A stretch of 64,000 nucleotides of DNA from Crambe crambe (taxonomy: Eukaryota > Porifera > Demospongiae > Poecilosclerida > Crambeidae), in the NCBI GenBank assembly GCA_963924555.1, contig OZ004589.1, positions 5,332,001 through 5,396,000 of the forward strand. Direction: 5' to 3'. Shown one piece after another: positions 1 to 64,000 of the stretch. The notes beneath the pieces are model-generated. The model was given only the letters and a program-made list of their open reading frames with translations. It did not search any database and was not told the origin of the DNA. Both the position numbers and the translations under genes were made by a program. Every line of letters begins with the position of its first letter. Within the stretch, counting starts at the first letter, position 1.

Positions 1-85
1 ATGGGCCTTTTGGAGGGAAAATTGACTTTTCCTTCCTGGATTTCTTCAGGCTATACTGTTTTTGAATGAAAATATCAATACATAC

Positions 86-537
86 TTGTCTTCCAATTCT
101 TTAATCACTCTATGAAGAATGGAGTGATGGACTTTCACTCCATTAAGTAACAGCAGTTCTATGATATCTTCACGTTTGACACTGACTGCAGCATCAAGGA
201 GCTTTTCCTGCTTGCATAATTAATGTTACATCAATGAGAATATTGCCCAAGGTTTGCATTATGTCACATAAAAACTCTATATCAATTAAAACTATAACTT
301 ACACCATTTTTTAGAGCACACCAGACCTTTTTTGATTGCTTTCTTTGCTATAAAGATAACAATCAATGATGTTAACTGATCGATATAATTATAGTTAATA
401 TAATTATTGATTACATGTGAATCAGCTGTAAAGGAAGTTTCATCAGTATTCTCATGGATTTTTTCATCACTAGTTGTACTTGTGATAGCACCGTTAGGAC
501 TGTTTTCTCTGCAAGTATATAGAGGGAGGGAGGGAGG

Positions 538-622
<85 letters not shown>

Positions 623-972
623 ACGTACATGGAGAGATGAAATCATTACATGTACCTGCCACGCAAAATCATTTTTTGGATGATACTGTATGAACAGTTA
701 TGCTCTATAGCGAAATACAGGGCACTCTTTCCTTCATCATCAATTTCATAGACATCTACAATATAGCTGCCATCTGTGCAAGCATTTTATGAAGAACAGT
801 GATAACAGACATCAATATAATTTAGCAGAGACTAACATACCTGAATCGTTTTTCAGGTCTATTAGGTGAAAAATATGAAGCGGTAACTTGGCTTCCATTG
901 CCATATGTAATGGTGTCTTACGTTCATGGTTGGGAGTGTTAAAAATCCTGAATACCATAAATTAGAAAATTG

Positions 973-1004
<32 letters not shown>

Positions 1005-3221
1005 AGGGACACAGTTATTGTGGAGCTCATGACACACAAATAATTATACTTCATCAATTCCAGCTACATCTTACTTGGCTAGGTCAAGGTTTGATTCCAT
1101 GAGCAAGGCTATCATTTTTTTGAACTCAATGGCTGGCATCTTGCTGGCAATAGCATTGTGAATGATGGTGCATCCTTTACCATCTACCTCTCCTGCACCT
1201 TTGCCTATAAAAATAATAAAATCAGTGATAACTAGATATGATAAATTTGAATTCTTCTTGAAATAAGATCCCTTTGATGTTTTTCAGCATTAGTGAGTCA
1301 TGTCTGTACACATAATTTTAGGTAAGGTGGCACATATGCACCATAATAGGCACTCTTATCACGATTGTACCTTTACAAACTTCCAGGATTATATTGGCTC
1401 TTCTGGGCTTCCCCAGCTTCAAAGCAAAGTTTAATCCTGTCCGAGTGTCACTATTCAGCACACAAAGGGGATTTTTTGAAGATGGTAAGTTTTAAAGTTC
1501 TCATCATGTCTATAAGAAATAACAGATGACATACATAATCATGATGGTAAAGCTGACTGATAAATTTATGGGCATAGTATGGCAGCCTTGACATAAAATA
1601 TTGTTGTGGTACACAAGGATAAGGTAGCTAGCTAGATTACTAGGGTATGTTCGTGTAACATATTCAATCGGTGAGGGAGCGAAGCAGTTGGTGAAAGTCA
1701 TTTGTACTTTGGGCTAAGATATTGCAGTGGTTGTGACACAAGAGGCTGTATAATGCTTACCACAAGCACTTAGAAAGCCAAGCACCTACAATCCACTTAG
1801 TGCCTCTATGAATGCTGTAGAAAGCAATAAGCTCTAGCTGTTTGTTCTAAGTGCTATGGGCATGTTTCATTTGTGGGGTCAAAGGTCAAACAAAGTGCGC
1901 ATGCGTATTATCAACTATGCCCGCTAGCTATTGACATACCAAATATATATATATATCACAAATCTCAATTTACATCACTAGTGTGTGGCTCCCTCGCTCG
2001 CCTAATTATGGTTGATAATTAATTTTAATTTTGCAAAAGCACAGAAATTAACTTTTACCTCATGAATTTCCCACTGTGTGTTACTGTAGCTATGCATGTC
2101 TATTCTGATAGCTAAAATACATTATGCAGCCCACTACCATCTGTCTGATCGGTGAAGGTTTTCATGAATTTTTTTTTTTCGGGGGGAGGGGGGATTTTTT
2201 TCATCCTGAACCAGTCAGAACCAGTCATACCCCACGCATTACATCCTCAGACTAAGCCTTATAAGTCATCTCATCATGTGTGTTTTTTCAGTATTGTAAT
2301 TGTATCCCTGAGGAAGGCCACCGAAACATCAGATATTTTTTTGATATGAATTTTTAAGCTAGTATCTAGAGAAATTTTACATAGTTGTTGTTGTTGTTTT
2401 TTCATTATGCAGATCGATTTTAATAATAAGAAAATAATTATTATGCTTCAATACAATGGTTAATTGTATGGTGGCCAAGTGGCTTAGTGCTTATCTATTG
2501 CTATTGACACTCTCATAAAGTAAGTTATTTGCTTCTACTTTAAACTTGCCTTATATTTTCAAGTACCTCACATGTTTTCTCAAAGTCGCTGTCTGGTCCA
2601 CTACACTTCACAGCAAGATGGATTGCACAGTTACCATCTTTATCTTGTTTAGCTACAATATTCATGATGAGAGGTACGTATAACAGATGCATGGTTGGGA
2701 ACTCACTGATCATTTTATGATAGTAATCTTCATGATTAACTTCAAGTTGAAAGTAGGGAAACATATCTGAATTACATAATGGAAATATGAAAAAAGTGGG
2801 GAAAATTGATTTTGGACTGCCATAATACTTCAGCTCACTTGTGTATGCCTTTATTAGTATATCCAATTGCTTGAACTTGTTCAGTGAAGCTGCTAGCATT
2901 ATAGGGGTCCTGTTTTCTCCATCTTCAAACTCAATGCTATTGAAAATTATTGTATAATGTGAATTTTTCATGGCAAAAATAATGTTAGTGTGCATTTCAA
3001 AGCACGAAATCCACAAAAAAATTTATCCCATAGTTAGCTTATCAGCAATAATTATCACCATTAATTTCACACCTTGGTCTTCCAAGCTTATTCACAACTT
3101 TGGTAAATTCTTCATCAGAATACACATCACTTCTCACTATTTGGTGCAATAGAGTGTTGCCTTTCATCACATACACTATATATGATGATGATAATGATGA
3201 TGATCATAAAATAATAATAAC

Positions 3222-3273
<52 letters not shown>

Positions 3274-6200
3274 TTAATAATAATATTATTATAATAATAA
3301 TAATAATATTAATAATAATAATAATGTATAATAGTAACCACTTCTTTTTGACAGGTTAACAAACAATTTCCTGTTTATATCGATTGATTCTTGCCATTCA
3401 TTGCTGATTCTGAACCAAATTCATTAGCTGAATTCTTACAAATGCAGTTACCAGAAATTGCAGCTGTATTTGCAGGATTATGAATTTCTTCTTTAGTTAC
3501 TGCTTTAGAGGTTCTTTTCCACCTTGTGGGACAAAGTCACTTTCCAAGAAGTGATGGACTAGCACAAGAATTCATGCTTTAGAAGCTCTTGAAGAAGCTT
3601 ACAGCTAACTGAGAACAAAATTCCCATACAATTGGTGGACTGGACTACTGGACTCACTAGAGAATCACTTGTTATTGTAGAACAATTAAGGCTTGAATAT
3701 GACTCGAGTCTAGATATATACTCGAGACTGACTGTCGTGACAGCTCTGCATGTCTGCTAGTGCACTGCAAACAAAATTTGAAGCACGTGCAAACTAGCTT
3801 GACAAAAAACTGCTACTTTTGCAGGGTGCTATGTGGCTATGACATTGAAGTGGGTTTATACATCTATACAGTTGAAAAATAGCTCCAGTCAGGAGATAAA
3901 AAAAATTAATGTGCATTTGTTTTAAATTGGGAACATTCATAGCCATGAATGATCTCAGTGAAGGAGGTGTTTGCTTCTCACCAACAGGTAACTCTGTGAG
4001 GCTCTACATGTATATTGATGATTGTTCATTTTAGGGAGGTTGTCTGCTTCTGGGAAGGTCTGAGTCCGCTAATATTGTATTCTAGCCCAATCCAGTAGAA
4101 CCTATGCCATAGATATAGCCATATAGCGCCCTGCAAAAGTATGTCAGGCTAGTTTGCACGTGCTTCAAATTTGCCACACAGCACACTAGCAGACAATATT
4201 GTATACAGAGCTATCAAGTCTCAAATATATATCTAGACAAGAGTCATGTTTGAGCCTTGCTCTATAATAACAAGTGATTCTCCAGTAGTCCAGTCCACCC
4301 CAAAGGAAGCCACCAGTTGTAATTCCAAAGGAAGCCACCAGTTGTAATCCCAAAGGAAGCCACGAGTTGTAAATCTAATACATCCCACAGGAAGCCATCA
4401 GTTGTACTCCTAATATATCATGGCTACATTAAAGACCAGACAGGATATGACCTGCGTACTTTTATTGCATGTCTATAATAATTGAATTTTATGGTTTGTG
4501 AAATATTAGTTGGTTTGAACTATTATATTGCTCAGGGAAAAGTTTGATTTTTTTTCTTTGCAGGCTCAGCCACCATTTTTGCTCCAAAAAGCAAGATTTA
4601 CAAAATGGAAAAATCTTTCAGTCCTCCTATGCAAAATTGGTTTCAGCTTCTTCTATATTCAATAAAGACGGTGTTATTGTTGGCAACATTGATATAGCTC
4701 ATTCCCAGATTTACCACCTAGTGCAGCTGGTTGCACCTACTGCAGCTGCATAGTTACCTTACTAGACATCATTGAGTACAGTGAATCTTGCAACCTTCGG
4801 AACACCAAACCAAAATTTATATAGCCTCCTTTCAAAGGACTTAATTGTGGCTTTAGAGTTGGGCTGCTTAAAGAAGCTATGTAAATTTTGGTTTGGTGTT
4901 CGTGCTGGCAAGATTGTAAACATTTACCAGACAGTTGTAAAGTTATAGCAAGCCTTTACCTAGCTGACCAGACCACCCATCTAGCATAAACAAATGGTAC
5001 TGTATAATGGTTAATGAATGAATCATGGTATGCAATAATTACTCTTTGGTGCTAGAATAATGCCACCCAGAGACTACACTAGCTCCACCCAAGTCACATC
5101 AGGGTGTAAAATCTAGAGCTAGCCATCCCTCTTGTAGCTATATATAGAACCTCCACTGTATTGTATAACTTACATGGGTCATGTTCAGCAAGAATGGCCA
5201 GTACGATTTTTGGTCTATCAAGGTAGACAGCTACCTTTAGTAGTGGTTCCAGCTGGTCCATGGTGCTTAATAAAATAAATCAAGCAGGTGAGTGCTTGGC
5301 CAACTCAGACTAATTGCAGCGAGCGAGCGAAGCGAGTGAGCTGACTCTCAGGTCATGACTCATTGAAATTTTAAATATATATATATATCTAGGTCTACAC
5401 TCCAAAATGCCCCAGGCGTACGTACGTACGTACGTACGTGTCGTGCAATAGTAGCGCCCCTGCGCGTGCACTTATGCGCATGCTCCAGTTGCAATTGCTT
5501 GATTGATTTCTACATCGCTTTGTATAATAGCATGGTGGATAGTAGGGCTAGGCTTATCTAAGTGGATTGTAGGCACTAGACATATCCAAGTGCTTTGTGG
5601 TAAGTACTTAGCTTTCTATGCATGCAGCTGCTTGCCACTTAGCTACATAACACAACAGCAAAGCACAAATGAACTATCAGCTCAACATTTCTACAGCCTT
5701 TTGGGCAGCAGGCACAGGAGGCTTATCTAAGCGGCTTGTAGGCACTAGGCTTATCTAAGTGCTTTGAGGTAAGTATGTATGCAGCTGCCTGCCACCACTT
5801 ACATGACTCTTAGCAATATCAAGCACTGAAGCCTATCAGCTACTTTAATTGCTCACTGTCAAATGCTGCACATTGCTACAGATACTCAACAGCAAATGAA
5901 AATCGTTGAAGAATACTTACTTGCTCGCTCGCTGTCAACTGAATGTTGAACATTGCCCTAGTTATAATAATTACAATGATTTTGTAGATAACTATTATGA
6001 GAGTGCATTCTTCTGCTCCATTTAGAATAGCCAATTCAAGTGGTAATTGTCCTCTTTGATTAGTCACAGTGTGATCTGTGTATTATGTGTATACAAAATT
6101 ATATGCCAGTAAGAATGATTATTATACTCACCTGCTCCATTGTCCAGCAATATCTTGACATTAGCTTTCATGTTATTTTTACAAGCAAAGTGTAATGCTG

Positions 6201-8668
6201 TCATTCCCTTGCTATCACTTCCACTGATATCCAGTTTTCTATAATTGTGAAGGAGCATTAGCTGGCTATGAGTACATCAACCTCTAATAATGAAAGTGTG
6301 TACTACATTGGTCAGGCAAATAGCCTGACTGTCTCTCTCCTATAATACCTTGAAGAATGTGGGAGGTGTTGGACTAAACAGCATTAATGGACCATATACA
6401 GTTGTAGCTACCAGACTCTCCCTGGAGCGAGACCATCGGATGTGGCAAATACCTGACCTGCCTGACCCAGCACTACACCTATGCTAGGAATGCACTCTGT
6501 AAACAGTAAGGTATAAACTGTATACCCTTAATCTTGTAAACTGATTACAGCGCGCATTCATTAATGGTATAAAGTGCAGTCTTGTTTTGTTTTGTTTTTT
6601 GGCAACTGTGTAGGATTTCCTTTTGAAGAAGCCCATTCAATAAAAGGTGGAACTGAATAGACCTCCTTACATTTGCTCTTGATGTGGAGTTAAGATTTCT
6701 TTCACGACCTCAGGAGATGAGAGACTTGCAGCTAGATGCAGGGCATTTCTGTGCTGATCCTCATCACAGGCACTAGGATCTGCAGTCATATCATATCAAA
6801 TTTTGTCTCATGAATATAGTCAAGTTATTTTCTTTTTGCTCTAATGGTCCACTGACTCATGAGAACACGTACAATGGCGTGCCAGCCCAATCATTAAAGC
6901 CTTGTTTATACTATGGCCCATGAGTGGATACAGTCTTAGCATACATAAATGGTTATTATATCGAAAGTGATGACCAGTTAATGCAGTAGAATGAACCATG
7001 GTATGCAATAATTACTTTATAGTGGCACCAGAACAAGCTTACTATAATGCCACCCGAGACTATACACTACACACCCAGCTAGGTCACTTCAGGGTACAAA
7101 ATCTATAGCCAGCATACTACATCTGGTTCTGCCATGCTATTTCAGAGCTATAGCACACACAAAGGCCCTCTTTTATGGCTTTGGGCATAATTAAACCATG
7201 TGTTTTGGCCACAAATAATGGCCCTGTGAACTAAGAGACAATCCTTAGACCTTAACATGAGATCACGTTCCCTATGCTCATGACATCTTTTCGAATCAGA
7301 ACCTAATTCCTTCTGCCCTTCACCAAGGAGGATAAGTTGATTCCACAGCTCAGTGCAACCCAAACCTATGAGCTACGTAGCTCATGCCTAATACATTTAC
7401 TATTACTGATGTCGCAGACTCACAGTACACATTCCTGTAGAACAAATTTACTATGGAAATGTGACCAGACCCTCTGCCTCGAAAAAAAAATTAATGAGGC
7501 CTACGTGAGCAGTGGACCACTACGTACATACGTAGCTAGCTATACCTGCTCCATTATCCAGAAGGATCTTAACTACTGCTTCATTCTTGCTTTCTGACGC
7601 AAAATTGAGTGGAGTCCAATTATATGCATTTGGCTTATTAACCAACTCTCTGCATTTCTGCTCCCTTAAAATTAATGAATTAATAATAAAGTTAGTTACT
7701 GTTGTTAATACGTATATTCAAACTTTTATACGTTAGTGAATGTAGCAGCAAGTCCACAATTTCTTCTGTTCCACGTATACAAGCAAAATGCAAAGCATTC
7801 AACATTGAATCACTATCCATCAGTAATGCATCTTTATCAAAAATAATAATAATAATTGTAGCAATGCAATTAGGTACTTTAGCTATACCTGCACCATTCT
7901 GGATCAAAATTTTTATCATATCAACTCTGTTGTATAAGACAGCATAATGTAGCAGAGTGAACCCTGTCCTTTTAATGCGATGGTATCTATACTGAAAAGA
8001 TCTCTCAACGAAACCAAGTCTTTCATCTCTGGCATTGATAAAAATTGGAGCATTACAGTTCTCTTCTACTATGTGCAAGGCTTCTTCATATTTCCTCTTC
8101 TCTAAAAACTTTAAAAAGAAAAAAAAACAATTTTTAATATTGCTGCTCCTGTTGGCTTCTGCATGTAAGCTTAAAATATTTCACCTAAGATTCTATATTC
8201 TCACTATCCCTATCAATTGTAGCTACCCATTACTCCCTATGGCAAGTTTTGCTAGGGCCCGTTTTGCTAATAATTATAATACCCTTTGTGTTTATCACTA
8301 GCCTCACCCTAGTAGTATAGTGTTATGGGTGTGTCAGGTGTGCCAAGTTTAGTCTTTAGGTCAGACATGACTCAGTCAGTCTTTCACTTCAAAAATAAAA
8401 AAACTCAACGTGTGGAGAGTGATGTTTCATTTCCAGTGAGGCCATGCAAGCGTTGAGAATGCAAGCTAAAGCAAAACTCCTGTCTGATCTAGCTAAGTGC
8501 CAAAAATCTCCGGAAAGATGTTCAGATTCCTACCGGTATAATATGCAATTATAGCCTAGTCCTTAGTCTGGCGTAGCGGCGACCCTTGCCGCTACGCCAG
8601 CTAGTCTTAACGTTACGTACCTCTATGGCTTGATAGAATAAAGGTGGAGTAGAGCCTTGGGCTTCCAT
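86..8668 (-). CDS. Gene A: TRPA-like channel, N-terminal ankyrin part (partial, two indels)
   Basis: The N-terminal half of a TRPA-like ankyrin-repeat channel; it continues past the left edge, so no transmembrane exon is visible. Exons, 5' to 3': 8668-8621, 8108-7889, 7831-7732, 7664-7546, 6779-6671, 6238-6132, 6075-5975, 5265-5174, 3175-3073, 2936-2839, 2766-2707, 2652-2550, 1509-1371, 1204-1075, 947-841, 773-656, 508-415, 207-86. The start gives MEAQGSTPPLFYQAIE, matching gene C. The exons encode ankyrin-type repeats such as GFTLLHYAVLYNRVDMIKIL. All sizes equal those of gene C except exon 7 (+1 nt), exon 13 (+2 nt) and exon 17 (+9 nt, in frame). The +1 and +2 indels break the frame unless downstream acceptors are used (exon 8 ending at 5252, exon 13 at 1450). 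Intron 12 has a GC donor. It is either a functional gene with shifted splice sites or a young pseudogene. Confidence 0.8.
511..620. repeat. (AG)n microsatellite with GGGA tract in gene A intron 16
   Basis: About 40 AG units follow a GGGA tract. On the gene A sense strand it is (CT)n just upstream of the exon 17 acceptor, so it forms the polypyrimidine tract. Gene C has a shorter (CT)n at the same place (26525-26553). The open frames of Ser-Leu or Arg-Glu repeats here are artefacts. Confidence 0.9.
3200..3335. repeat. (ATA)n microsatellite in gene A intron 8
   Basis: A long ATA/ATT trinucleotide tract lies next to the exon 9 acceptor of gene A. The paralogous intron 8 of gene C carries a (GTT)n tract at the same place (about 23658-23730), so this splice-site-proximal microsatellite is old but changes sequence. 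Confidence 0.85.
3638..4301. mobile_element. Imperfect foldback element in gene A intron 8
   Basis: Arms at about 3638-3830 and 4115-4301 are inverted, imperfect copies. Shared stretches include GGACTGGACTACTGG, AATCACTTGTTATT and CTAGTTTGCACGTGCTTCAA read in opposite orientation. The centre is unrelated. No coding region is present. It resembles a non-autonomous foldback transposon. The paralogous intron of gene C (23561-23764) lacks it. Confidence 0.65.
4298..4412. repeat. Short tandem repeat, about 25-bp period, gene A intron 8
   Basis: Four degenerate units built on AAGGAAGCCACCAGTTGTAA occur in a row directly after the right arm of the foldback element. The third and fourth units have diverged. 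Confidence 0.75.
4790..4916. repeat. Hairpin-forming inverted repeat, gene A intron 8
   Basis: GAACACCAAACCAAAATTTA near 4799 is matched in inverse by TAAATTTTGGTTTGGTGTTC ending near 4903. The stems are about 25 bp and the loop about 55 nt. It may be a small MITE or its remnant. Confidence 0.6.
5313..5957. mobile_element. Insertion in gene A intron 7 with 3-bp target duplication
   Basis: Intron 7 of gene A is about 710 bp, while the matching intron of gene C is 65 bp and aligns to both ends of it. The extra DNA is bounded by CTA at 5310-5312 and 5958-5960. The uninterrupted site is in gene C at 23418-23420 (TAG on the plus strand). Inside are GCGAGCGAGC-like ends and two copies of a motif around GGCTTATCTAAG. 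Related sequence lies at about 1745-1910. The element class is unclear. Confidence 0.6.
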
Positions 8669-9415: not shown

Positions 9416-9467
<52 letters not shown>

Positions 9468-9953: not shown

Positions 9954-9970
9954 GATCCTATCAAGTGGTC

Positions 9971-26522: not shown

Positions 26523-26557
<35 letters not shown>

Positions 26558-37169: not shown

Positions 37170-37643
37170 GATTATTATAAAGAAAAAGAACGAAAAGTCA
37201 ATTTTAGAACTCGTTTTTTTCTTATGTTGGCGAATGAATTTTTGGCTTTTGAACATTCTCCTCTCTTCTTTGTAGATATAATAATTCACTGTAGCCTTCT
37301 GAGAACCTGTAGAGTAAGGGTAGAAGAGAAAGAAGAGTTTTTAGTTTATACTGTCCTATGGACTTTGACCTGCCATCCCTACTTAGAGAGTGCTACCGCA
37401 CTCTCTGATTATTATAAAGAAAAAGAACGAAAAGTCAATTTTAGAACTCGTTTTTTTCTTATGTTGGCGAATGAATTTTTGGCTTTTGAACATTCTCCTC
37501 TCTTCTTTGTAGATATAATAATTCACTGTAGCCTTCTGAGAACCTGTAGAGTAAGGGTAGAAGAGAAAGAAGAGTTTTTAGTTTATACTGTCCTATGGAC
37601 TTTGACCTGCCATCCCTACTTAGAGAGTGCTACCGCACTCTCT
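37170..37643. repeat. Tandem pair of a 237-bp unit ending in an inverted repeat
   Basis: Two near-identical units start GATTATTATAAAGAAAAAGA (37170 and 37407). Each ends in AGAGAGTGCTACCGCACTCT, a self-complementary sequence. Related sequence, inverted, occurs at about 40645-40790 in gene D intron 23 and at 59757-59790 in gene E. The open frame across both copies is a by-product of the 237-bp period being a multiple of three. Confidence 0.85.
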
Positions 37644-37824
37644 GAGAGTGCTACCGCACTCTCTGATATTCCTTCTCATGTAGTGAACCCAGTGAGAGTG
37701 TTGACTGAAGTGGACCTGTTGGGTTTTCATTCGTGAGCTAGCTAGCTATAATTAAGTTATAATGATAATAGCTATTATTATAAAATAGAAGCATGTTACT
37801 CTGATCTCAGAATTAAGTGGCAAA

Positions 37825-50639: not shown

Positions 50640-51830
50640 AGTTTGAAGTTGTTGTTTTTTGTTGTTTTTTTTTCAAAACAAGAAAGCACGAGGAAACATT
50701 GCATATCATACAAGAAAATTGCAACGTTCCAGAATTTATTAACACCACAGATGAAAGACCTGGTTCTATTGAAGAATGTTTTTGGTATAGGTATGATCAT
50801 ATCAAGAGAAAAGGTTTCACTCTGCTCCATTATGCTGTTCTCTACGAACAAACTGACGTGGTGGACATATTGATTCACAATGGTGCAGGTTAATTAGCTT
50901 ATTCTTTAATGCCTAATACTACCTACTTCTTTGCTAGATTTTCTGTGTGACTATACACCTTTGCCTTTTGCTTGTATGTCACCGTTAATGTGTCTCTGAG
51001 TGGAAATCTAGGAATGCTCACTTGGAACGGAACAAGTTGTGGAGCTGCTATTACATTCATTACCAAAATTATGTTTCTACTATAGAGAGGCTAACCACTT
51101 CTGTCACTTATTGTATAAAATAATCATGTCATCATTGTTGATTTTTGTGGTTAAATCTGTGTGCATGTGTTTAATTACTTTCTAGAGCTTGCTGTATCAT
51201 GTTTCTTTCTATCTCAGTCAGTCAGTGTTGTGATTCATGCATGCCTGTATTTCTTTAGTGTATGAAATATTGATTCCAATAACTTCTTTATAGCTAAACT
51301 GTTACTGTATAGGCAAGTATAGTAGCTATTGAGATTTGATGATCACTGCATTCATGGCCCTTCACCTTGGAGAATAATTAGCTGTTTCTTGGTAGCCACA
51401 TGATTATTATTTCTTGGTATACTATCAGAATTAGCATTATGGAAGCGTCTAAAGTCTCATATGTCACTCATGCCATAATTAACAGAGTGTCTAGAGTACC
51501 GGCAGACTAGGACATCAAATTAATACTATGAACCTATTCTTGGTATTGGTAGCCACATAATCATATTTATTGCTTCTTGGAATGGTAGCTAGCTATACCA
51601 TAATGTTTGATATTATAATACAATATTATAGCATTAACAAATTCATCATTGGTAGCAGCCTCAGCTCAGCGACTAAAGTCTGGTATTAAAATAATTAATT
51701 TTTAGTTGACACATTCTTGATACCTTAGCTATTAGCTAATTTGATGCCAGTGTTAACAATATTCATTGTTTTTAGAAAAGTAATTAGTCTCAGCTCAAAA
51801 GCCATCACCCATACCACTATGCATGAGTTC
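50640..51830 (+). pseudogene. Fragment of B/D-type channel gene: exons 2-3 and intron 3
   Basis: 50677-50888 matches exon 2 of B and D (TLHIIQENCNVPEFINTTDE; GFTLLHYAVLYEQTDVVDIL) and ends at a GT donor. Degraded exon 3 follows at 50937-51064, disrupted by a 60-bp insertion with frame loss. Sequence to about 51830 matches gene D intron 3 in inverse order (GTTTCTTGGTA, CAGAATTAGCATTATG). There is no exon 1 and no exon 4 onward, so it is a pseudogene. Its orientation is opposite to gene D. Confidence 0.8.
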
Positions 51831-52575: not shown

Positions 52576-55500
52576 ATGGCCACTGATGAAAGTGATTCGT
52601 CTCCACAGATACAGCTCTCAGAAGATGAGCTTAAAAAATACTTCGAGAATATTGTTGAGGTATGTTAGTACGTAGTGCTACGTACGTAGATAAGCATGCA
52701 ATACCGTCGAACCGTACGCGTAAATTCGCGAAGAAATACACAACGTCTGCTTTTCGTAAAGTCGGCGTTGTTAAATTATTATTATTGCTTTATAGCACGA
52801 GATAAAGTGAAGAAAGAGAATAAAGGTAGGAGGGAAAGTCCGTGAAGGAGATTTGCGAGAGAGCTCATAAACTTTAAGTCCTGATGGAATGTATTTCATC
52901 AGGACTTAAGGAATGTCATAGGCGAGGAAGACGCTACGGAATATGGGGGCAAGATTGGGTGGTGGGAGAGCAGCTAATCTCACTAGCGAGAGAGAGTAGA
53001 TATTGAAAATTATTAGCAAATCCATCATCAATATAACTTAGCTAGTTCTTCTTCTTCTACTTCTTTTCTTTTTCTTCTTCTGTGACCGGCAATGCAAGTA
53101 CTCTGAGTAAAGGACACTTTGGGATCAGCCACTTTATCCTGGACTGCAGGGGCGGATTTAGCCAGTCTTCTTACGGTCAATTATTTTTATATTAGGTAAA
53201 GATCGTCAGCGCATGCGCAGACTGATCCTACACTCTTGGAAGCATAGTTTTCGTCTGAGAAAGAAAGGTAAGCACTTAGCATTTGGTTAGGTTTCAGCCA
53301 GTACAGTTTATTGCTAGCAGCTAGTTACAGGCTACAGCTACTAGAATGCTATGAAGCTTTAGACATTGAGGCTTGGTAGCTAGCTAGCTACAGGATGTTA
53401 TGAACCTTTAGAGATAGCTGGACCATCTTCAATGCCATCTTCATCAGCACCAACTTCTACCTAATGTGTTGTGAAATGGGCGTGGCTGAGCAAAGGCGGG
53501 CGTGGTCAGATAAAAAATTTTCCGGCGCGCTTGCGCGCCGGGTAGTACTAAATGGAAGACAGTCTATTTCAAGGGATAGATCCGACCGCCCCTGGAGTCC
53601 TTGTAGAAGGGTTGTCCTTTCCTTGGACGTTAAAAATGTACTAATGCTATGGGAAAGGGGCTTCCAAAAGCATCCTTCATTCCTTTTCTTGGAGGCGTTC
53701 CACTGTAGCAGGACAGCTTGGAGCCAGAGATTCATATCTGTCGAAGGAGGGGTGGTCTATGAATGAAAATGTTGTTGCACACAAATTCGTGCCTGTAGAT
53801 TATTAATCTTGTTGAATTTTTGCTTCATGCACGATGCTTAATTATTTAAGTGAACATTGTATCATGGAGCTGAAACTAAAAAAAGTGTAGTGGAAAGACT
53901 CCCAGCTTCATGTGCATGCGTACGTGTGCGGTTCAACTAAATCTAATCACGTATTAGGGATGGAGAAGTTAAATTCGACAGAACTATTAGCACGAGGTGA
54001 AGCCAGAGTGTTATTTACTACATTATAAGTGCGATCACAGCTTGTGGCAAACTTAGCCTGTCGAAGAATGATGTATATTTCTGGGCAGAAGGACATGTAT
54101 GATAAAACCACAACATTCTTGTATATAATTGGTTGTTGTTTCTTGGTTGATGATGAGTACGGGTAAGGGGTTACTTGACTCACTTGTTGCTGAAGGGGGA
54201 GTGAAGTAAGGATTTAATTTTGGTGATATTGGTGTGGTTATTGAAATTAGGAGGGTTAGTAGTGATAGGAATTGGCAACAAGGCTAGCTAATCAGCGCAT
54301 GCTCATTGAATAAGTGTGCTATTACAGTTCTTCGTAAGTGTGCTATTTCAGCATTCTCTGTAGTTAGTTTCTATAGTACAGCTTAGCTATATAGCTAATG
54401 ATTATAATTATGGTAATTTTTTGTTGTATAAAATTATAGAAAATCGAAAGTGAATGTGGTGGCAAAGAGCAATTTAAAAAATTTTGTGATGAATATAGTG
54501 GAAATGTCTCTAATATGGTTAAGTTTCGAGATAAAAGGAAGGAGAAAAATGAGGGATTCATATTTATGGGCAGAACTGAAATAGAGAGAGAGAGAACTAC
54601 TCTGTTACATTATGCAGTAATGAATGACGATGTAGAAATAGCAAAATTGCTGATTGAGAAAGGTGCTGGTAAGTATGGCTAGTTACATGTATCCATGGTT
54701 TTCAAAGGGAGCCAGCCATGCTTATATTTCTGGGTGGATCCAATTAGTAGCTATTGTGTATAATACAAGTAGCTAGATAATCACATCATTCATTAATAAC
54801 CTTATAACCTTATAACCTTATGACCATTATCAGATATTGCTGCAGAAATGGATGATGGATCAAATGTACTTCGCTATGTTTTTTCTTATGAAATGCTCGA
54901 GAAAATATTTACTACTTACAAATCAAAAGAAAAGAAAGAAATGTATGTAGGTAATTTACCATGGAGCCAGTTTGATGTGTCAACTTGATAGATGCATTGT
55001 CTGTAGCTGTATACATGTGCATGGTTTTGGTGAACACATGGAAGTTATTTGCTATAACAAAAGCAACATTAATTTTATTATTAACAATGCATGATAGCAA
55101 TAGCCAGATGTCATTAGCTTGTGTGATGATTTTACTTTTTATAGAGAAAGTGAAGTAGTTAATAAAAAGAACAGATATGCTTGGACTCCTTTATCATATG
55201 CTATTAAGCAGAAAAATGTCTCAATGGTGAAGTATCTTCTGGATCATGGTGCAGGTATAGCTATAACTATTATAGCTATAAAATTAATTATTATAAAATT
55301 AACTTTCAGATGCCGAAAGAGAATATGGGCATTCTACTTTCCTTTTTGCTGCTAAATTTTCATCTGCTGAAGTTTTTAAGACTATGGTTGAATACTATGA
55401 AGAGTAGGCTAAAGCTAACTGTTGTTAAACAGAATAATGCATGTTTTCATTAATTTTTAGAAAAGAAAATGGTTTCGATGTATCTAAATATGTTAATGAA

Positions 55501-58500
55501 ATCAAGGATGACAATGACAGGCCAATAGAAGTAGCGAAAGAATTTGAAGGTATTGGATTCAGAACTTTATATTTTGCTTGCTGCCAGAAAGCCAAGAAGA
55601 GTGAAAGAATTCTAAAGTTGGTGGAAACATTATTGAGCTTAGGAGCAGGTACATGCATGGCTATTCGTTACCTGTGTATACTGTCTAATTTTGTATTTCC
55701 TTCATTATACAGATCCTTCAAAATGTGATGATAAAGGACAGACTGGTTTGCATTATGCAGCAAGGTGTTCTGATGAGTCCATACTTCAAAAAATACTTGA
55801 GAATGAGAAGATAAAGTGAGTTTTAGGAATAGTAGCTAGCAAGTTAATACAATGTGTGTTGCTTAAGATGAGGTGTAGATGGTGTCATCCACTCAATTCT
55901 GTTAACTACTTTATCTGATCTGCTGTAATTTTAGAAGATGCAAAGGTCGTCTAGTCAATATGAAGGACAAGGAAGGTCATTCACCACTGTGGTATGCATT
56001 CTATCACGGACAGCCAAAATTTGTGCAAATTTTGATGCAAAATGGAGCTAAAATTCAAAAAGAGCCAGGTGTGTATAATTTCATGTTTTCTCTTGAGTAC
56101 ACTGAAGTACATTAGCAAAGAGGCAAATTTAAATTGTACAACCATAGAAAGTGAAATTTAGCCGGCTTGTGTGTACATTTAAACCCAAAGTTGTGCTACT
56201 CAAAAGCATGCATGTGATAGTGTATAAGTTATAGCTAATCCCTAAAACATGTAGAGAAGCAATATTATTTATTGTTGCTTAGTAATTGTAATTAAAACAA
56301 GACTATAAGAATATAATGTAGGTAATGTTCCGGATATGTAGCATTGACAAGTTAATTATACTGCAACATTTTTATTTATATCCTTATAGAAGAATCATTA
56401 GTTGAAATTTTGGTGACACTTATTGAGAGTGATAGCTATGCTGGGGAAATCTTTGAAAGCATTGCAATGTGTGTGGACATAACCTGGTATGTTCTTTATT
56501 TGGGTCTGGTATTAGAGCTACAGCAAAGTGACGACTCTGATGAGGGTTGAAAGAGGGGCACTATTATTATATCATTGTACATTCTGTCCTAAGCTTCACT
56601 CACTACAATGCTTGCATTTCCCTTGTAGTAATTGACCTTTGAACTTAATTAGTCCTAATAATATTGGACGTGCTAAGAACCCGACCAACCCGACCATTTG
56701 CTATGCCCTTGATAACCAATAACTAGCTACTGTACTATACTTTTACGGATAAATCATAATTATTGGATAATGCAGTAGCTATTTAGCTATTTTCTGCAGT
56801 TTTGAAAAGGAGCTGGATTTACAACATCAGGAAAAATGCCTGGGTACGAGGTTAATTCAACAACTACAGAGTCAAGATAGAGATAAAAATATGAATATGT
56901 TTCAGCTTGCTGTTGTATTAAATCAGCCTGCTAAATTGAAAATCTTGTTGAGAGCTTATGAATGTAAGTGTATCTTTACTTCCCATGTATGAATCTAAGA
57001 AATCTTTCATGCATAGGTACGTATACAATTATCTATACTATGTTATATCAATGTAGGTAGCTATTATCATTAACACTTCCTTCCAAAACTGATATCTTAC
57101 TTATTCAGCAACAAGTTAGCTTAGCTATATATGGAAAACATAGCTAATGTGATAGTCCCAAGTAGTTATTAGCTTAATTGAACTTATCATGTGTTCTTAG
57201 TTGCTACACCAAATTTCAGCTACTTGTTATAGTCATCCAAAATGAATGTCTAATTTCATTCCTGGGACTGTACAGCATATTGAATTGTACTTGTTGTATA
57301 CTGTTACTGCAGTTATTCTTATAAAGCTCGAGTTTTCTGATGCAAGTACATTAATTGGTGAGTATGAGTCATATAATAATTATGAATTAGCTTAATGTTG
57401 TATTTCCTCAATAATTCTGCATGTGCGTGTGTGCACGTGGGTGCGTGCGTGTGTGTGCATGTGCATGTGCATGCATGTGTGTGTGGGCATGCATAAATGT
57501 GATAAAAGAGGCCTTGATCACACACAACACACCTGTTCCTGTTTGACAGCTGCTGTTAAACGGTCATGCTTGCCCGCAAAGTCTCACCCCAGCTTCCCAG
57601 CATGCATTTATGAAGAGCCAATCCTCCTCTGCTCTTAAACCAGCACGCACTGGACTGCTCCATGCTGCTCATTCACAGGCTTCTGTCTCTCATTTAAACA
57701 CTTGTGTCTCTTTCTCTACTGAAACTCCTGGAGCACACCTCACACACCACATCCCTGACTACCACCAAAGCCTGAGTAGCCTACAGCTCTCCAAACCAGC
57801 ACAATACAGTGTCCTCCATCCTGCTCTAGACTTTCTGGCTTCCTCATACCATTCACTCTCTTCAACTTCAATGTCCTTAAGGTCCTTGCGCACCACATCT
57901 CTTCATCTCATCCTTGGACCACACCTGGGGCAAGTTTGAGGTAACCAGTTGACTTTGGCAGTCTATGGTCTGACATCCTTGCTACCACTCTAATCTTCTC
58001 TTCCTGACTTTTTCTTCATCTCCCCATCTCCTTCTCACTTCAGCCATGGTAGCTGTGTTCAGTCCACTGTTTTCTGTTGGAGATACCCAAAATGATCCTG
58101 ATGCATCAATGATGAAAGGTGTTCAACTTCTTGATGTGCTTCCTGAGAGGGGTCCAGCATTCCGCTCCATACAGCAGCACTGACAAGACGCAAGCATTTT
58201 ACAGCCTCCTCTTAGTGGAGCTCAGGTTCCTATCCAGAGACAGCTTTCCTCAGTGCACCAAAGCCTTTGATGCCTGAGCCACTCTTTTGTCTACATCAAC
58301 ATCCATTCTCCCCTAAAAGACCTAGCTAGCTAATCCTCCCAACCATCAGCTTTGCCCTTAATAGTCTGATCTGTGATCTGTGTTGCAGTCAGCTCCACGC
58401 ATCACAGATATATTCGTCTATGGGCCTTTCTCATACTATACAGTGTCACCTCTTGGACTTCGGGTGCTGCCAGGTCTGCTTGCAGATATCCCTCTTCTTG

Positions 58501-61500
58501 AAACAAGTGTTGCACACTGTGGCCTTGTTTGTAGAGAGTAAATATAACAGTTCCTCATTGAGCTCACCATACCCACCACTTATCAACCACACCTCTGGAC
58601 CCCACACAAGCATTGAAATTATCCAGCATTGGTTACTGTCCATCTGAAAGTTGGAGTGGGAGGAGTAGTCACCTGCATATTCTATCATGCTATGCTCCAA
58701 CTTTTGCTGCTAGTAGGAATGAGAAGGATGGTAGTCTGCAAGATGCTCTATTGTCAATTCCATCTGATGAATGCTTTGTGATACCTTGAGTTCCAAGCCT
58801 TCCATTGGCTACTGCCTGCCTTCCAAGCACTCAATGCAGGACCAGTGTATGCGATGGCATGCCATCAGATGGCATCACATAATCATAGTTTGCTACAAAG
58901 AATCAACCTAGCATGGTAATTTGTAAACCAAAAGTTAACTGATACAATGCTAATTCACATGATGTCACACAGAAATCACAACCACCTTCATAAAGAACTA
59001 GCTCAAGATGCATATCCTACAATGACACAGTCCAGACTCCTGTGGGAGTGGTCCCACCCTTTTCGTAGCTATAGCCATAGGTCAAAAGACTAATAGAACT
59101 GAAACCTATGGTTGGCAATAATCTCTCCAGATAGAAAATCTAGGCCTATTATCATAAAGACAAACACTGTACATGTACACAACACAACACAACACACACT
59201 ATTAATTTTGCTATAAAAGCATTTGATATTGCTTTGCAGTTTTATAATTATGTATTATCATGTACATAGATAAACACTTCCGCAATCGATTCCCATATCA
59301 TTTAGCCTTGTACTGGGGCTGTTCACCTGACCTTATAGACCAGCTGAACAAAAGGTAAGAATTATAATAATAATTGATAGCTGAGGAATTTATTTTCAAG
59401 GATTATACACTATCTTTCAGTGGATGTACCAAAAACGTTCTTGATTGCTCAAGTGAAACTACTCAGCCTGCAGCAAAAAAGAATTCACCACTTAATTGCT
59501 TAAGTAAAAAAACTCAGCTTGCAGCACTTGAAAGATATAGGGATATTATGGGTGTAAGTGAAGTTACTAGCAGCTACATAGCTCTCAGTGAAAGTGGTCC
59601 TAGGGAACCATTAACCAACCCTGGAGAGGGGTTATTTTGTATGTCATTTTAATGTTTTAGCAATTTTAAATCATTATCTGTTTTCATTATAGCTACTTGA
59701 GTGCCCCATTGAATGATTTGTTCTATATACTTACAAATAAGCATTTGTATTGTTACTATCAGAGAGTGCGGTAGCACTCTCTATGTAGGGATGACTCGGA
59801 CGGCCGCGCGCGCCGCCTATAGACTAATACACAAAAGTGAAATTCTAGTTCCCCCACTTAGACCTAACAAAAGCTACTGTGAATGATTATCCAGCCTACT
59901 AGAGCCTACTACAATGTGCAGACCAAGTTTCAGGACCAGGGAGCTTACCGTTTCAGAAATACGGCAAGCAGGTAAATCGCTGGATTCTTCTTCTTCTCTA
60001 TTATTCTTCTTCTTCTTCTTAGACAACCATATCTCTCGAACCACTCAAGCTACAGCTATGATTTATGGATAAATCCACTCCAAATTCTACGAACTACGAT
60101 CTTTTCTGCTCGTTGATCCTCGAAAGAGTCGATGAAAAGGAGACACTACGGAGCATAGCACTTGACTAATTCAATTAGGAAGCCATCTTTTCTATAATAC
60201 GCATGCGCATGTATTAGATATCCAATTATTCGAAATTATAATATTACTCAGCTGTCTCTAGCTAGCTAGCTAGCTACACAGCGAAAAATCTACAACTTGT
60301 AAGCATTCTGTAACAGGTATGTAACAGAACAAAAATCCGTAAACCCTAGGCACCGGAAGTACTAATTTTTGATCTGTAGGCAGTTGGTGGGGCAGCAGGT
60401 CTGATACAGTCCAAAAATACAGACCTGTTACAGACTTGTAGATTTTACTGACCCGTTACAGACCTGTGTACAGGTCATAACTGGTATGTGGGGCAGTCCA
60501 GACCTGTTACAAGTTGTAGATTTTTCGCTGTGTAGCTAGATAATGATGATAGACTACTGTATCGACTCGGGGATTTAGATTCACGACGGTAGACTCTATT
60601 TCATCTTCCTTCGACCTCCAAGTATAGCTCAACAATAACACAACACCTTGACTCGTTGATAATGATTGGGCTGGTATGCTGGAGAACTATTGGAGAACTA
60701 TTCTTCTTTCATCTGTCCCTGCATACACATAGAAGAATGAACTCTATACATAGCTAAAACCATAAAAGAGAGGAAAAAAGACCAGGAACAAGTAAGGGAA
60801 AAAGCATTTTGTGAAATGAAAAAAAAATGTAGGGATGACCACTGCTCAAAAAAGTAAGGAAACAAGAAGGATGGAAATGGGATCAATCTTTGTTCTGTAT
60901 ATCCAGCCAACAATCCCTACATATACGTACATTACCTGAAGCTACCCGACGTATATGTAGGGATTGTTGGCTGGATATACAGAACAAAGATTGATCCCAT
61001 TTCCATCCTTCTTGTTTCCTTACTTTTTTGAGCAGTGGTCATCCCTACATTTTTTTTCATTTCTTGAAATGCTTTTTCCCTTATCCCATACATTATGGCT
61101 ATATAGCTAGCTAGATTTTTAATACTGAATTGTTTTTCTTTTTTCTGTTCATTTGCTTTTTTGTTTGTTTGTTTGTTTGTTGTTTTTTGTTTGCTTGATG
61201 TTTCATAATCATGATCAATTGTTAGGAGAGTGAGATTAAGAAGATGCTGAGTTCTGAAAAAGTAAGACTTTGCTGAAGTATCATCCTACGTATCTTCAGC
61301 ATTATGGGTAGCTGGCCTGCTAGAATACACCAACATGTAGCTGATAGATAGAAACTAGCTATACCTGGATAACTAATAATTATTATAGGAAAGACAAAGA
61401 CCATTGGAGATTGCTATAGAATGTGAACGTCTGGATATACTGGAGTTGTTTGTGAAACATTGGAAAGTTGATATATATCCTTCTACACTGATATATGCCA

Positions 61501-63973
61501 TTAAAAAGCAGAAAAAAGAGTAAGTAGCTATATATATTTTTTAAACAAAATTTTCAGTCCATAAATGAACTTTTATTTCATCCATGGGTGTTATTGCAAG
61601 CAGGAAAAGTACAATTAGCTAAACTAGCTAGCTAGCTAGCTAGCTACAGGGAATTTAGATATAGGAACTCTCCAATGAGAAGATTAGAATAGGCCATAGC
61701 ATAATTATATATGCACATAAAGAAAATGGTAGCCTATGTTGGCCGAGAACTATAGTGCCAGCTACCATAATGTTTTTACAGAGCCTACAGTGGTTGTTTG
61801 ACTCTGACATTGGAAAATCATGCAATGTCAACTGTGAGATGAAAGGAGTTAAGATACTATAATTATATTGAAAACTTTCCTATGTATCTGAAAAGTAAAG
61901 TTTCAATTTCTCCATCAAGAAATAATACAGCAATGATCAGATTCATTTCACTAGTACAACAATGACGAAATCTCTGATGAAATCTCTCTAACTGCAGGAC
62001 AAACTTATTATAAAGCTTCCATTCATACTTCATACTTGCTAGCTATCATTATCGTCGTTGGGGGGTACCTGTACCACACTAGCAAGCATCCAGTTACCTA
62101 CAAAATAAAATAAATCTAAAACGGGTAAATGGATAAGTAGGAATGGCTGTGTGAAAAGTTCTGAGTTAGCCCTCCTAATTAGCCTGCCCCTTATTACCAA
62201 CTACTGGTAAGCTACATACCTATCCTTACTTCACTCCCCATGAGAGGCCAGGATAGCTAATTACAGGCTCAATAGAACCAGTGTAGTTAGCTTAAGTAGT
62301 TGGTAATAGGAGCAAGGAGTACTTGTTCATGAACTTTTTTGAACTTTATACCTACTTGTCTGTTTAGTGCAGTGGTAGCCTATAGAATTTGGAAGTGGTA
62401 CATATGTAGCTAATTCAATTGACTTTGATGGGTTACCAAATTCATGAATGATAACTTTTTTTAGATACTGTGAAATTATTGTGAAACATGGTGAAAACAT
62501 TTGTCAAATGTTGAGTATTGGTGCATATGCACCTTGTCGACCTTCGATAGCAGAAAATGACACAGAAATGTCCAATCAGACATCAGAAAATGGAAAAAAT
62601 GAAAACCCATTCATACAATTGATCAAATCTATGCCAGGTTAGTATTAATAGGAACAATGATACATATAATTATAGCTGCTGTATGGTACTTCAATAGATA
62701 TGGCCATAGAAGCATTAAATCGCTGTCATGAGAAGGATAAAGAAGATCAAGATGGAGTAGAGAATAGTGGTAACAAAAAAAAGTACACAGATCAATTGGT
62801 CAATGATTGGTAAGTGATTTATAACTAGTATAAGCTATTATTATTCATAATGGTATTAACTACAGTCATTATAGTAGTGAGTCAAAAAACGAACATCCAC
62901 TGGAAGCGATGGTAAGTAAAATGCAAGCTAATCCTCTGGTCAAAATACTCAAAAATAATAATCCCCATATGTTCGCATACACATACTTGTTAGAATAATA
63001 TGTACTTGCATATAACTACAGTGATTCGCAATATGGGGGTGTTTAGTTGACACTGTGTATTGCTACATTTTTATAGGTTAAAGACAAATGTAATATTGAG
63101 CTTTTAGAGCATTCAGATGTGGCTCGAGTCATAAAATCCAAGTGGCTTCAATATGGTTTGTGGTTTTATATACTGAACTTAGTGACATACATCATCTACC
63201 TTGGGTTTCTCTCTGGTCTATCACAAATACCAAGAGGAAGTGTGGTGTGCCATAGTAAGTTCCTTTAATTTGCATATGTAAGATGATACTACTATCTACT
63301 GTTTCTTTCAGCTCCTAATTCCACAATGATCACGAAGAACAGTGAAAAAAAAGGTATAGCTAACTAAATGCTTTGAGAATTAAACATCCATTGAGGGACG
63401 ATAAAATATTTTATTCCAGTTTTCCACCCCAATCATAATTCTATCACATTAAAAATTAGTTCCTCATTAAAATATAGCTAAATTTGATAATTAATGATTA
63501 TAAGTATGCGAAAGAAATCTGAACCTCTAATTTTCATTTCAGTGTTAGCATCACTTGTCATCGTTTTTGCTATTATTCGATTAATCAACGAAGGGATCCA
63601 ATTTATCCTGTCTCTGAAAAAAATTTTCTGCAAAAAGATGCTTCCAAATTATTTCTTCCCCATATTTAACAAACTGGACAGCTACTTGGAGATGTTTATT
63701 TTCATATCAGCCATTGTGATTAGTGGAATAGTGCTTTCAAGCAACACCAGTGGCTGTCTTACATCCACGACATACAACTTCACAGTGTTCATTGTTGCTT
63801 TGAGCTGGATAAACCTCATCCTTTTCTTATCAAAATTGCCTTTCACTGGAGTTTATGCCCTTATATTCATCAGCATGGTTAAAACGTTTCTCAAGTTAGC
63901 ACTCTTTGCCCTACTTCTGGTAATTGGATCCACATTGGTGCTAGTGATGCTATTCTCCAATTCTCAAGCCCCA
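52576..63973 (+). CDS. Gene E: divergent TRPA-like channel, 3' end beyond window
   Basis: Divergent family member; 908 codons are visible. Exons: 52576-52659, 54440-54668, 54834-54942, 55145-55254, 55310-55403, 55461-55648, 55713-55815, 55935-56068, 56390-56486, 56800-56963, 57313-57357, 59270-59354, 59421-59553, 61226-61261, 61389-61519, 62465-62637, 62698-62809, 62866-62911, 63077-63254, 63312-63353, 63543-63973. All junctions close in frame. It starts MATDESDSSPQIQLSEDELK. The ankyrin-type repeats are recognisable (TTLLHYAVMNDDVEIAKLL, TGLHYAARCSDESILQKIL). It lacks the stretch corresponding to exons 14-17 of B, C and D; only a 12-codon exon (61226-61261) lies there. The pre-S1 motif is MPDMAIEALNRC, S1 is in exon 19 and S2-S5 in exon 21 (KLPFTGVYALIFISMVKTF). 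The pore, S6 and C-terminus lie beyond the window. Exons 11 and 14 are the least certain. Confidence 0.85.
52660..54439 (+). other. Gene E intron 1, 1.8 kb
   Basis: The long first intron holds a hairpin TAAGTCCTGATGGAATG with its inverse (about 52876-52910), a CTT-rich tract (53047-53075), a GCGCATGCGC palindrome (53209-53218) and a GC-rich hairpin GGCGCGCTTGCGCGCC (53523-53538). The segment 54150-54270 resembles 8835-8915. A consensus donor (AAAG then GTAAGC) at 53267-53272 lies downstream of the palindrome and could mark an alternative first exon. Open frames at 53457-53766 have no recognisable product. Confidence 0.4.
57421..57500. repeat. (GT)n-rich tract, gene E intron 11
   Basis: Imperfect GTGTGC/GTGCAT repeats directly precede the LINE relic. 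They may represent a low-complexity insertion target. Confidence 0.7.
57525..58640 (-). mobile_element. Degenerate non-LTR retrotransposon (LINE) in gene E intron 11
   Basis: On the minus strand, about 58620-58370 resembles the end of a LINE endonuclease domain (ATVCNTCFKKRDICKQTWQH). About 58320-58060 resembles the C-terminal part of the reverse transcriptase ORF (LLYGAECWTPLRKHIKKLNT). About 57940-57560 resembles the end of the same ORF (DVVRKDLKDIEVEESEW, then EVCSRSFRRERDTSV and a second C..C finger-like stretch). Most of the reverse transcriptase domain is missing between the first two parts, and several stops and frameshifts interrupt the rest. It is inactive. The type is typical of animal genomes (recalled, not searched). 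Confidence 0.75.
59757..60780 (+). repeat. Dispersed repeat in gene E intron 13, related to 24860-25535
   Basis: Starts with CAGAGAGTGCGGTAGCACTC, a self-complementary sequence shared with the 237-bp repeat at 37170. It contains TTTCAGAAATACGGCAAGCA and CTCGGGGATTTAGATTC, matching the gene C intron 12 copy in inverse. It is interrupted by a separate element at 60277-60532 and followed by the palindromic MITE at 60795. Confidence 0.6.
60277..60532. mobile_element. MITE with 26-bp perfect inverted ends, gene E intron 13
   Basis: The element begins CACAGCGAAAAATCTACAAC and ends with the exact inverse over 26 bp. Both sides carry TAGCTA (60271-60276 and 60533-60538), a possible target duplication in a TAGC-rich site. 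The matching repeat in gene C lacks it. The interior repeats the motif ACAGACCTGTTAC. No coding region. Confidence 0.8.
60795..61081. mobile_element. Palindromic MITE in gene E intron 13, best-preserved copy
   Basis: AGGGAAAAAGCATTTTGTGA and its inverse form the ends, flanked by TA. The element is a nearly perfect palindrome over 287 bp, with a short loop around 60940 (GAAGCTACCCGACG). The family includes the copies at 19702 and 24598. TA flanks fit a Tc1/mariner-type target. Confidence 0.8.
63077..63973 (+). other. Gene E S1-S5 exons
   Basis: Exon 19 (63077-63254) is 178 nt, the same length as the S1 exon of B, C and D, and encodes ELLEHSDVARVIKSKWLQYG and a hydrophobic S1. Exon 20 (63312-63353) encodes the short loop TPNSTMITKNSEKK with an NST sequon. 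Exon 21 (63543-63973) carries S2-S5, with the S4-S5 motif SKLPFTGVYALIF. The following pore exon is outside the window. Confidence 0.85.
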
Positions 63974-64000
63974 GTGAGTTGAATTAATTACTGGATCACT

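What the first reader, a model, noticed from the sequence alone, without database searches (positions are those of the whole stretch)
1..64000. Cluster of five TRPA-like ankyrin channel genes
Every gene in 64 kb belongs to one sensory-channel family, with three complete and two edge-cut members. Hand-built models give 29 exons with conserved phases in B, C and D. TRPA channels are chemical and thermal sensors in animals with nerves. If the host is a sponge, a local expansion in an animal without neurons would be notable. The host identity is an inference.
Basis: partly seen in the sequence, partly recalled or inferred. Interest (0 to 1): 0.75.

Follow-up and report, generated by a model that had tools for sequence, protein, structure and literature searches.

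The report
TRPA sensory-channel gene array in sponge
This stretch of a sponge genome carries a row of duplicated genes for TRPA-type sensory ion channels, the family that detects irritants and heat in animals with nerves; such expansions were already known in sponges, but part of this row has lost residues that let human TRPA1 respond to calcium and irritants.

Summary
The window holds five TRPA-type genes: A (reverse, runs off the left edge), B, C, D (nearly complete, about 1,100 residues each) and E (runs off the right edge). It also holds a 5' fragment of a sixth at 50.7-51.1 kb. Ankyrin repeats precede a six-segment channel; in a profile search of the PDB the first nine places are all TRPA1 (E 3.5e-46 to 2.3e-33), then TRPV4 (2.6e-12). 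Of 24 modelled introns in C, 17 share position and phase with both B and D. dN/dS is 0.2-0.4. A has two length differences from C that break the frame. The array continues right of the window: at least nine channel genes over about 179 kb, and seven similar genes elsewhere. The host is a sponge: a silicatein signature occurs six times in this assembly. TRPA diversification in demosponges is already in print (Kenny et al. 2020), so this is a new member of a known kind. Added here: in A-D the positions matching human Ca2+-site residues N805 and E808 are Lys and Arg, and no array gene with a residue there has a cysteine at C621 or C665. No transcripts were available; the only named comparison species were human and fly.

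The parts
86..8096 (-). Gene A: 5' and middle part (first ankyrin exon 7889-8096; 19 of 29 modelled exons lie in the window); the channel part lies left of the window (L029). Probably frame-broken.
10088..19516 (+). Gene B: TRPA-type channel, 25 modelled exons (first exon with start codon not placed), 1114 aa modelled, stop codon at the end
16936..18645 (+). Gene B channel exons: S1 (16936-17113), S2-S5 (17815-18242), pore to S6 (18299-18517), TRP-like helix (18577-18645)
   Evidence: TRPA1 match
21324..31915 (+). Gene C: TRPA-type channel, 25 modelled exons, 1096 aa modelled, stop codon at the end
28464..31126 (+). Gene C channel exons: S1 (28464-28657), S2-S5 (29576-30018), pore to S6 (30219-30422), TRP-like helix (31058-31126)
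33495..37645 (.). C-D intergenic block of nested direct and inverted repeats; its first 283 bp is a high-copy element. Not part of the genes.
38434..48276 (-). Gene D: TRPA-type channel, 25 modelled exons, 1098 aa modelled, stop codon at the end
39663..41499 (-). Gene D channel exons: S1 (about 41322-41499), S2-S5 (40076-40503), pore to S6 (39794-40012), TRP-like helix (39663-39731)
50669..51081 (+). Truncated sixth copy: first ankyrin exon (50669-50890, 92% DNA identity to B) and part of the second; I found no match to the later exons of that copy before E begins
54499..64000 (+). Gene E: 5' and middle part; ankyrin exons near 54.5, 54.8-54.9, 55.1-55.3, 55.7-55.8 and 55.9-56.1 kb; S1 exon 63077-63254, S2-S5 exon 63543-63973; pore onward lies right of the window (L030). 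The exons between 56.1 and 62.4 kb are not reliably modelled.

Best explanation
A tandem array of TRPA-family cation-channel genes in a silicatein-bearing sponge (most likely a demosponge), grown by local duplication: an older split into an A-D type and an E-I type, then the A/C and B/D pairs. Each intact gene encodes a subunit with an N-terminal ankyrin-repeat region, a pre-S1 linker, six membrane segments with a TRPA1-type pore (Gly-Glu at human 914/915) and the TRP-like helix motif LAVGD. By homology, four subunits would form a Ca2+-permeable channel that turns an external stimulus into a Ca2+ signal in non-neuronal cells such as choanocytes or osculum cells. The A-D type probably is not gated like human TRPA1: it lacks the matching electrophile cysteines and carries Lys/Arg where human TRPA1 has the Ca2+-site residues N805 and E808. 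Shown: gene structure, family, purifying selection, array, residues. Inferred: tetramer, ion flow, stimulus, cell type.
For: Channel-domain profile (B, C, D, E and two genes from elsewhere in the genome): the first nine PDB sequences are TRPA1 (3.5e-46 to 2.3e-33), next TRPV4 2.6e-12; with the pre-S1 linker 1.5e-55 to 1.1e-44 against 2.3e-17; D alone 5.6e-13 against about 1e-3 for TRPV3. Ankyrin Pfam families over cut-off in 2 of 2 proteins given. Six hydrophobic segments in B, C, D and E, as in human and fly. Shared introns, 17 of 24. dN/dS B-D 0.41, A-C 0.40, B-C 0.23, C-D 0.20, A-D 0.20. Array and genome-wide copies. Trees. Silicatein signature. Key residues. [quoted passage not shown]
Against: Pfam Ion_trans hits none of the four window channel domains given (B, C, D, E) at E up to 0.1, though it hits the C20 gene, and the genome-wide Ion_trans search listed no place in the window. 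NCBIfam 'trp' matches D far below its cut-off (25 against 499 bits). No transcripts: splice sites rest on GT-AG rules and cross-gene conservation, the model program avoids stop codons by construction, first exons are missing, and D lacks 16 bases around an exon end used by B. A looks frame-broken. The dN/dS of the deeper pairs is biased down because codons in poorly matching stretches were dropped (B-C 821 of 1081 kept, C-D 813 of 1078, A-D 783 of 1066).
Confidence: 0.9

Rival explanations
1. The genes belong to another ankyrin-rich TRP family (TRPN/NOMPC or TRPV/TRPVL) and resemble TRPA only through ankyrin repeats.
For: With full-length C as query the single best PDB hit is NOMPC (7.4e-45), through ankyrin repeats.
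Against: With the channel domain alone, the weakest of the nine TRPA1 hits leads TRPV4 by about 21 orders of magnitude, and NOMPC is not among the 35 hits or the 60 shown of 105. A-I models carry the LAVGD motif after S6, also seen in human and fly TRPA1.
Confidence: 0.05
2. A decaying array: most copies are pseudogenes and only one or two are used.
For: A differs from C by two length changes that are not multiples of three, one in an ankyrin exon and one in the pore exon; a 5' fragment of a B/D-like gene lies at 50.7 kb; further partial hits lie at C12:5508.7-5509.3 kb.
Against: B, C and D can be read from the first ankyrin exon to a stop with largely shared splice sites; dN/dS is 0.20-0.41, including 0.41 between the recent pair B and D.
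Confidence: 0.12
3. The host is not a sponge, so the point about animals without neurons does not apply.
Against: Six copies sit in Peptidase_C1 genes that match exon by exon on a 7.2 Mb contig, with none for the reversed control. The Cys-to-Ser change is described as the key difference between cathepsin L and silicateins (PMC6233156, passages seen).
Confidence: 0.04

Closest known systems
Demosponge TRPA diversification (Ephydatia muelleri genome, Kenny et al. 2020, PMC7385117)
   Same: Diversified TRPA-group channels in demosponges; the same proposed roles in mechanoreception and chemical sensation without nerves (passages seen)
   Different: I could not see their gene table or supplement, so whether a tandem array or the A-D residue changes exist there is unknown. 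Here the arrangement, intron conservation and residue changes are described.
Human TRPA1 (PDB 6v9v and others)
   Same: Ankyrin region, pre-S1 linker, six segments, TRP-like helix; profile alignment covers residues 615-991 of the chain
   Different: No cysteine matching C621 or C665 in the sponge genes with a residue there; Lys/Arg at N805/E808 in A-D; Gly-Glu rather than Gly-Asp in the filter. C641 is kept as Cys in E-I and the C20 gene, and Y799 as Tyr in A-D.
Drosophila TRPA1 (PDB 7ykr; fly by recall of the entry)
   Same: Best single match of the channel domain; Gly-Glu filter as in the array
   Different: Keeps Cys at the three positions 621, 641 and 665 and Asn at 805, but has Ser at 808
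NOMPC / TRPN (PDB 5vkq)
   Same: Long ankyrin region before a TRP channel
   Different: Channel domain not matched among the hits listed; TRP-N was reported absent from two sponges (PMC4494053, passages seen)

Membership tests
TRPA | N-terminal ankyrin repeats | tested here: met
   Pfam Ank families over cut-off in 2 of 2 proteins given, B and C. Repeat number not established: a one-sequence consensus from memory found 4-9 stretches, several with negative scores.
TRPA | Six membrane segments with a pore loop between S5 and S6 | tested here: met
   Six hydropathy peaks in B, C, D and E, the same count as human and fly TRPA1 (the C20 gene gave seven); no structure prediction was run
TRPA | Channel domain closer to TRPA1 than to other TRP families | tested here: met
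   First nine places TRPA1, large gap to TRPV
TRPA | TRP-like helix after S6 with LAVGD motif | tested here: met
   Present in all nine A-I models and in human and fly; that the motif marks TRPA is recalled
TRPA | Groups with TRPA in a tree with TRPs of many animals and choanoflagellates | not tested
   Only human and fly TRPA1 were at hand; no non-TRPA outgroup in the trees
TRPA | Pfam Ion_trans domain | tested here: not met
   0 of 4 window channel domains at E up to 0.1; the C20 gene hits; no window place in the genome-wide search. A general ion-channel model, not a TRPA-defining one.
TRPA1-like electrophile sensor | Reactive cysteines at human C621 and C665 | tested here: not met
   15 sponge genes aligned: Cys at 621 in 0 of 14 with a residue there, at 665 in 0 of 12. 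A more distant gene (C20:1655 kb) has Cys aligned to 641 and 665 (an alignment that also held one chimeric row).
TRPA1-like Ca2+ control site | E788, Q791, Y799, N805, E808 | tested here: not met
   For A-D: N805 is Lys and E808 is Arg in 4 of 4, Y799 is kept. In the other 11 genes, E808 is Glu in 11 and N805 is Asn in 9, Ser in 2. The S2 positions (788, 791) align uncertainly in A-I and shift.
TRPN (NOMPC) | NOMPC-like channel domain | tested here: not met
   No NOMPC among 35 hits with D's channel or among the 60 shown of 105 with the profile
TRPA | Stimulus-gated cation current | not testable with these tools
   Needs expression and recording

The most novel reading that the evidence does not exclude
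The A-D genes are a TRPA type in which the S2-S3 calcium control site has been replaced by built-in positive charges (Lys and Arg at human N805 and E808). This would make gating independent of, or permanently set as if bound by, intracellular Ca2+, and insensitive to electrophiles at C621/C665, so the array would hold two functional classes (A-D and E-I) side by side in an animal without neurons.
Probability: 0.25. Interest if true: 0.55.

Novelty: new member of a known kind. Interest (0 to 1): 0.35.

Why it matters
Sponges sense flow, touch and chemicals without neurons, and TRPA channels are leading candidates. A mapped array with two residue-level classes, plus TRPA1-like genes without obvious introns elsewhere in the same genome, gives concrete genes for testing which stimulus and which cell type each class serves, and what TRPA did before nervous systems. 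The expansion itself was already reported for demosponges.

Tried and rejected
TRPN identity was suggested by the full-length search and rejected on channel-domain searches. Pfam Ion_trans was expected to confirm the channel and did not hit the four window domains given. An early template missed the S2 exon, so the models lack S2 in A-D; corrected after finding a shared phase-1 donor and acceptor. One C9 Peptidase_C1 gene was tried as silicatein and kept the cathepsin active-site Cys; the signature pattern then pointed to C15. The script stopped with an error after the first E-F figure (0.39, 503 of 810 aligned codons kept); dN/dS was not obtained for F-G, G-H, H-I or the two C1 genes. One search held an accidental chimera: a file of four loci was read as one, so its row c6 and its tree are void; one search repeats the tree with that row corrected. 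Non-TRPA outgroups were not at hand. Paper searches on sponge TRPA were 25 of 174 listed; 4 of 4; 4 of 4; 12 of 12; 3 of 3; I saw no title or abstract start about a TRPA gene array among those listed. The library holds only open-licence papers and I could not see the supplement of PMC7385117.
Full report
What is there. The window is C12:5332001-5396000 of a 143 Mb assembly in 119 contigs. Comparing all open frames of the window with each other gave a clear set of paralogous exons on both strands. A small gene finder that scores conserved codons and GT-AG splice sites, then a spliced protein-to-DNA alignment, gave models of 1,096 to 1,114 residues for A, B, C and D. A is on the reverse strand and its channel half lies left of the window; B and C are forward; D is reverse; E is forward and continues to the right (L030). 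The first exon with the start codon is not placed in any gene, and a few very short exons are doubtful.

Is it more than chance? In B, C and D, 17 of the 24 introns of C lie at the same alignment position (within one column) and phase as in both others; 5,000 random draws gave at most 2. Synonymous changes exceed amino-acid changes: dN/dS 0.41 for B-D (1074 of 1090 aligned codons kept), 0.40 for A-C (1049 of 1082), 0.23 for B-C (821 of 1081), 0.20 for C-D (813 of 1078) and 0.20 for A-D (783 of 1066). The deeper values are biased down because poorly matching stretches were dropped. A, however, differs from C by two length changes that are not multiples of three, one in an ankyrin exon and one in the pore exon, so A is probably broken. 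D lacks 16 bases around an exon end used by B, so its exon end there is uncertain. A further B/D-like 5' fragment lies at 50,669-51,081.

I found no gene of another family in the window. I listed 53 ORFs of 60 aa or more in six gaps, some of them parts of E, and gave 10 to Pfam; none passed a cut-off. There are no tRNAs and no Rfam matches. Much of the C-D gap (33.5-37.6 kb) is nested repeats.

What family. With the whole protein C, the best PDB hit is NOMPC through ankyrin repeats, followed by TRPA1. The channel domain decides. D alone hits TRPA1 (5.6e-13 best) with TRPV3 next at about 1e-3. A profile of six channel domains (B, C, D, E, the C20 gene and one C1 gene) puts TRPA1 in the first nine places at 3.5e-46 to 2.3e-33, then TRPV4 at 2.6e-12. 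A second profile with the pre-S1 linker (B, C, D, E, the C20 gene and the C15 gene) widens this: 1.5e-55 to 1.1e-44 against 2.3e-17. NOMPC is not among the listed channel hits. Ankyrin families are over cut-off in 2 of 2 proteins given, and six hydrophobic segments are present in B, C, D and E. Against: Pfam Ion_trans misses all four window domains given and lists no window place genome-wide, and NCBIfam 'trp' matches D only weakly.

The array is larger than the window. Six-frame searches of the genome with channel domains of D, of the C20 gene and of E show channel exons of the same type at C12:5328-5330 (A), 5349-5350 (B), 5361-5363 (C), 5371-5373 (D), 5395-5397 (E), 5427-5430 (F), 5453-5455 (G), 5485-5486 (H) and 5505-5507 kb (I): at least nine genes over about 179 kb, with partial hits at 5508.7-5509.3 kb. 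I read only parts of the stretch right of the window (L030, L042-L045), so other genes between them are possible, and the ankyrin parts of F-I are not reliably modelled. Seven similar genes lie at C12:3033, 3185 and 4400 kb, C1:4161 and 4193 kb, C15:3764 kb and C20:3895 kb. More distant ones lie at C6:3500 and C16:2695 and 2705 kb, and as open frames of 1,193 to 1,215 codons at C20:1651 and 1655 and C21:4944 kb. All counts are lower bounds.

Trees of the channel part (17 rows, 23 rows) place A-D (100) and E-I (100) as sister groups (91/89 and 93/92), with A+C and B+D as pairs (99-100); the C1, C12 and C15 genes are next. In one search the three C20/C21 open-frame genes fall on the human and fly TRPA1 side of the tree, but several branches are long, the tool warned of long branches meeting, and the root is a midpoint. 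The tree is void because of a chimeric row.

Host. A degenerate pattern for the silicatein active site (Cys-Gly-Ala-Ser-Tyr/Phe-Ala-Phe, recalled) matched six places, all at C15:872.8-884.9 kb, all reading Ser, and all inside Peptidase_C1 exons listed; the reversed control had none. The Cys-to-Ser change is described as the key difference between cathepsin L and silicateins (PMC6233156, passages seen). So the host is a sponge; that it is a demosponge is an inference.

How it probably works. By homology these are subunits of tetrameric, Ca2+-permeable cation channels with an ankyrin region that senses or relays the stimulus (inferred). Residues that matter in human TRPA1 (C621 and C665 for electrophiles; E788, Q791, Y799, N805 and E808 for Ca2+; G914 and D915 for the upper gate; PMC8036557, passages seen) were read off an alignment of 15 sponge genes with human and fly. 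Cys at 621: 0 of 14 genes with a residue. Cys at 665: 0 of 12. Cys at 641, by contrast, is kept in E-I and the C20 gene; A-D have Ser. N805/E808: Lys/Arg in 4 of 4 of A-D; in the other 11 genes Glu808 in 11, Asn805 in 9, Ser805 in 2. Tyr799 is kept in A-D. Fly has Ser at 808, so that position is not fixed in TRPA1. The S2 positions align uncertainly in A-I. The filter is Gly-Glu in all nine array genes, as in fly. I infer that A-D are not controlled by Ca2+ and electrophiles in the human way; this is untested.

What is known. Kenny et al. [quoted passage not shown] muelleri and other demosponges as a mechanism for mechanoreception and chemical sensation; they also cite earlier work implicating TRP channels in osculum sensing (PMC7385117, passages seen). 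That earlier paper discusses mainly polycystin-type channels, and the word TRPA does not occur in its text (PMC3890488, passages). TRPA homologues are upregulated with the aquiferous system in Halichondria panicea (PMC9798719, passages). Choanoflagellates have TRPA (PMC11526382, passages). TRP-N was not found in two sponges (PMC4494053, passages). The finding is therefore correct but of a known kind; the array layout and the A-D residue changes are the additions.

Noticed in passing
window 33500-33782 (and 33495-37645): The first 283 bp of this repeat block occurs at 100% identity in 39 other listed places on six other contigs, each with an overlapping 93-96% inverted copy shifted by about 160 bp; the first look had 1135 candidates, only 40 scored. 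It looks like a very young high-copy, near-palindromic element.
   Followed up: partly
window 60793-61083, 24585-24877, 19718-19943; also L042, L043, L037: A second dispersed, largely palindromic repeat (81-93% identity) sits in introns or flanks of several of these TRPA genes.
   Followed up: partly
G000:C15:872-886 kb: Six silicatein signatures on alternating strands, in three units spaced 5,050-5,055 bp apart with identical motif DNA: three head-to-tail copies of a silicatein gene pair, either real or an assembly artefact.
   Followed up: no
G000:C12:3033 kb and C12:3185 kb: Two TRPA-type loci whose main channel exon has identical match scores in three searches, 152.6 kb apart; a second exon scores slightly differently. 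A recent large duplication or an assembly duplicate.
   Followed up: no
L007, L008 and L050 (C20:1655, C20:1651, C21:4944 kb): Open frames of 1,193 to 1,215 codons that match TRPA channels (two were read here and have ankyrin-like repeats and the LLIGLA motif); they fall on the human/fly TRPA1 side of the tree, and one has cysteines aligned to human C641 and C665. Possibly intron-poor or retroposed TRPA1-like genes.
   Followed up: partly
G000:C9:8658-8682 kb and C3:8571-8580 kb: Dense clusters of Peptidase_C1 exons; one C9 copy read here keeps the cathepsin active-site Cys.
   Followed up: partly
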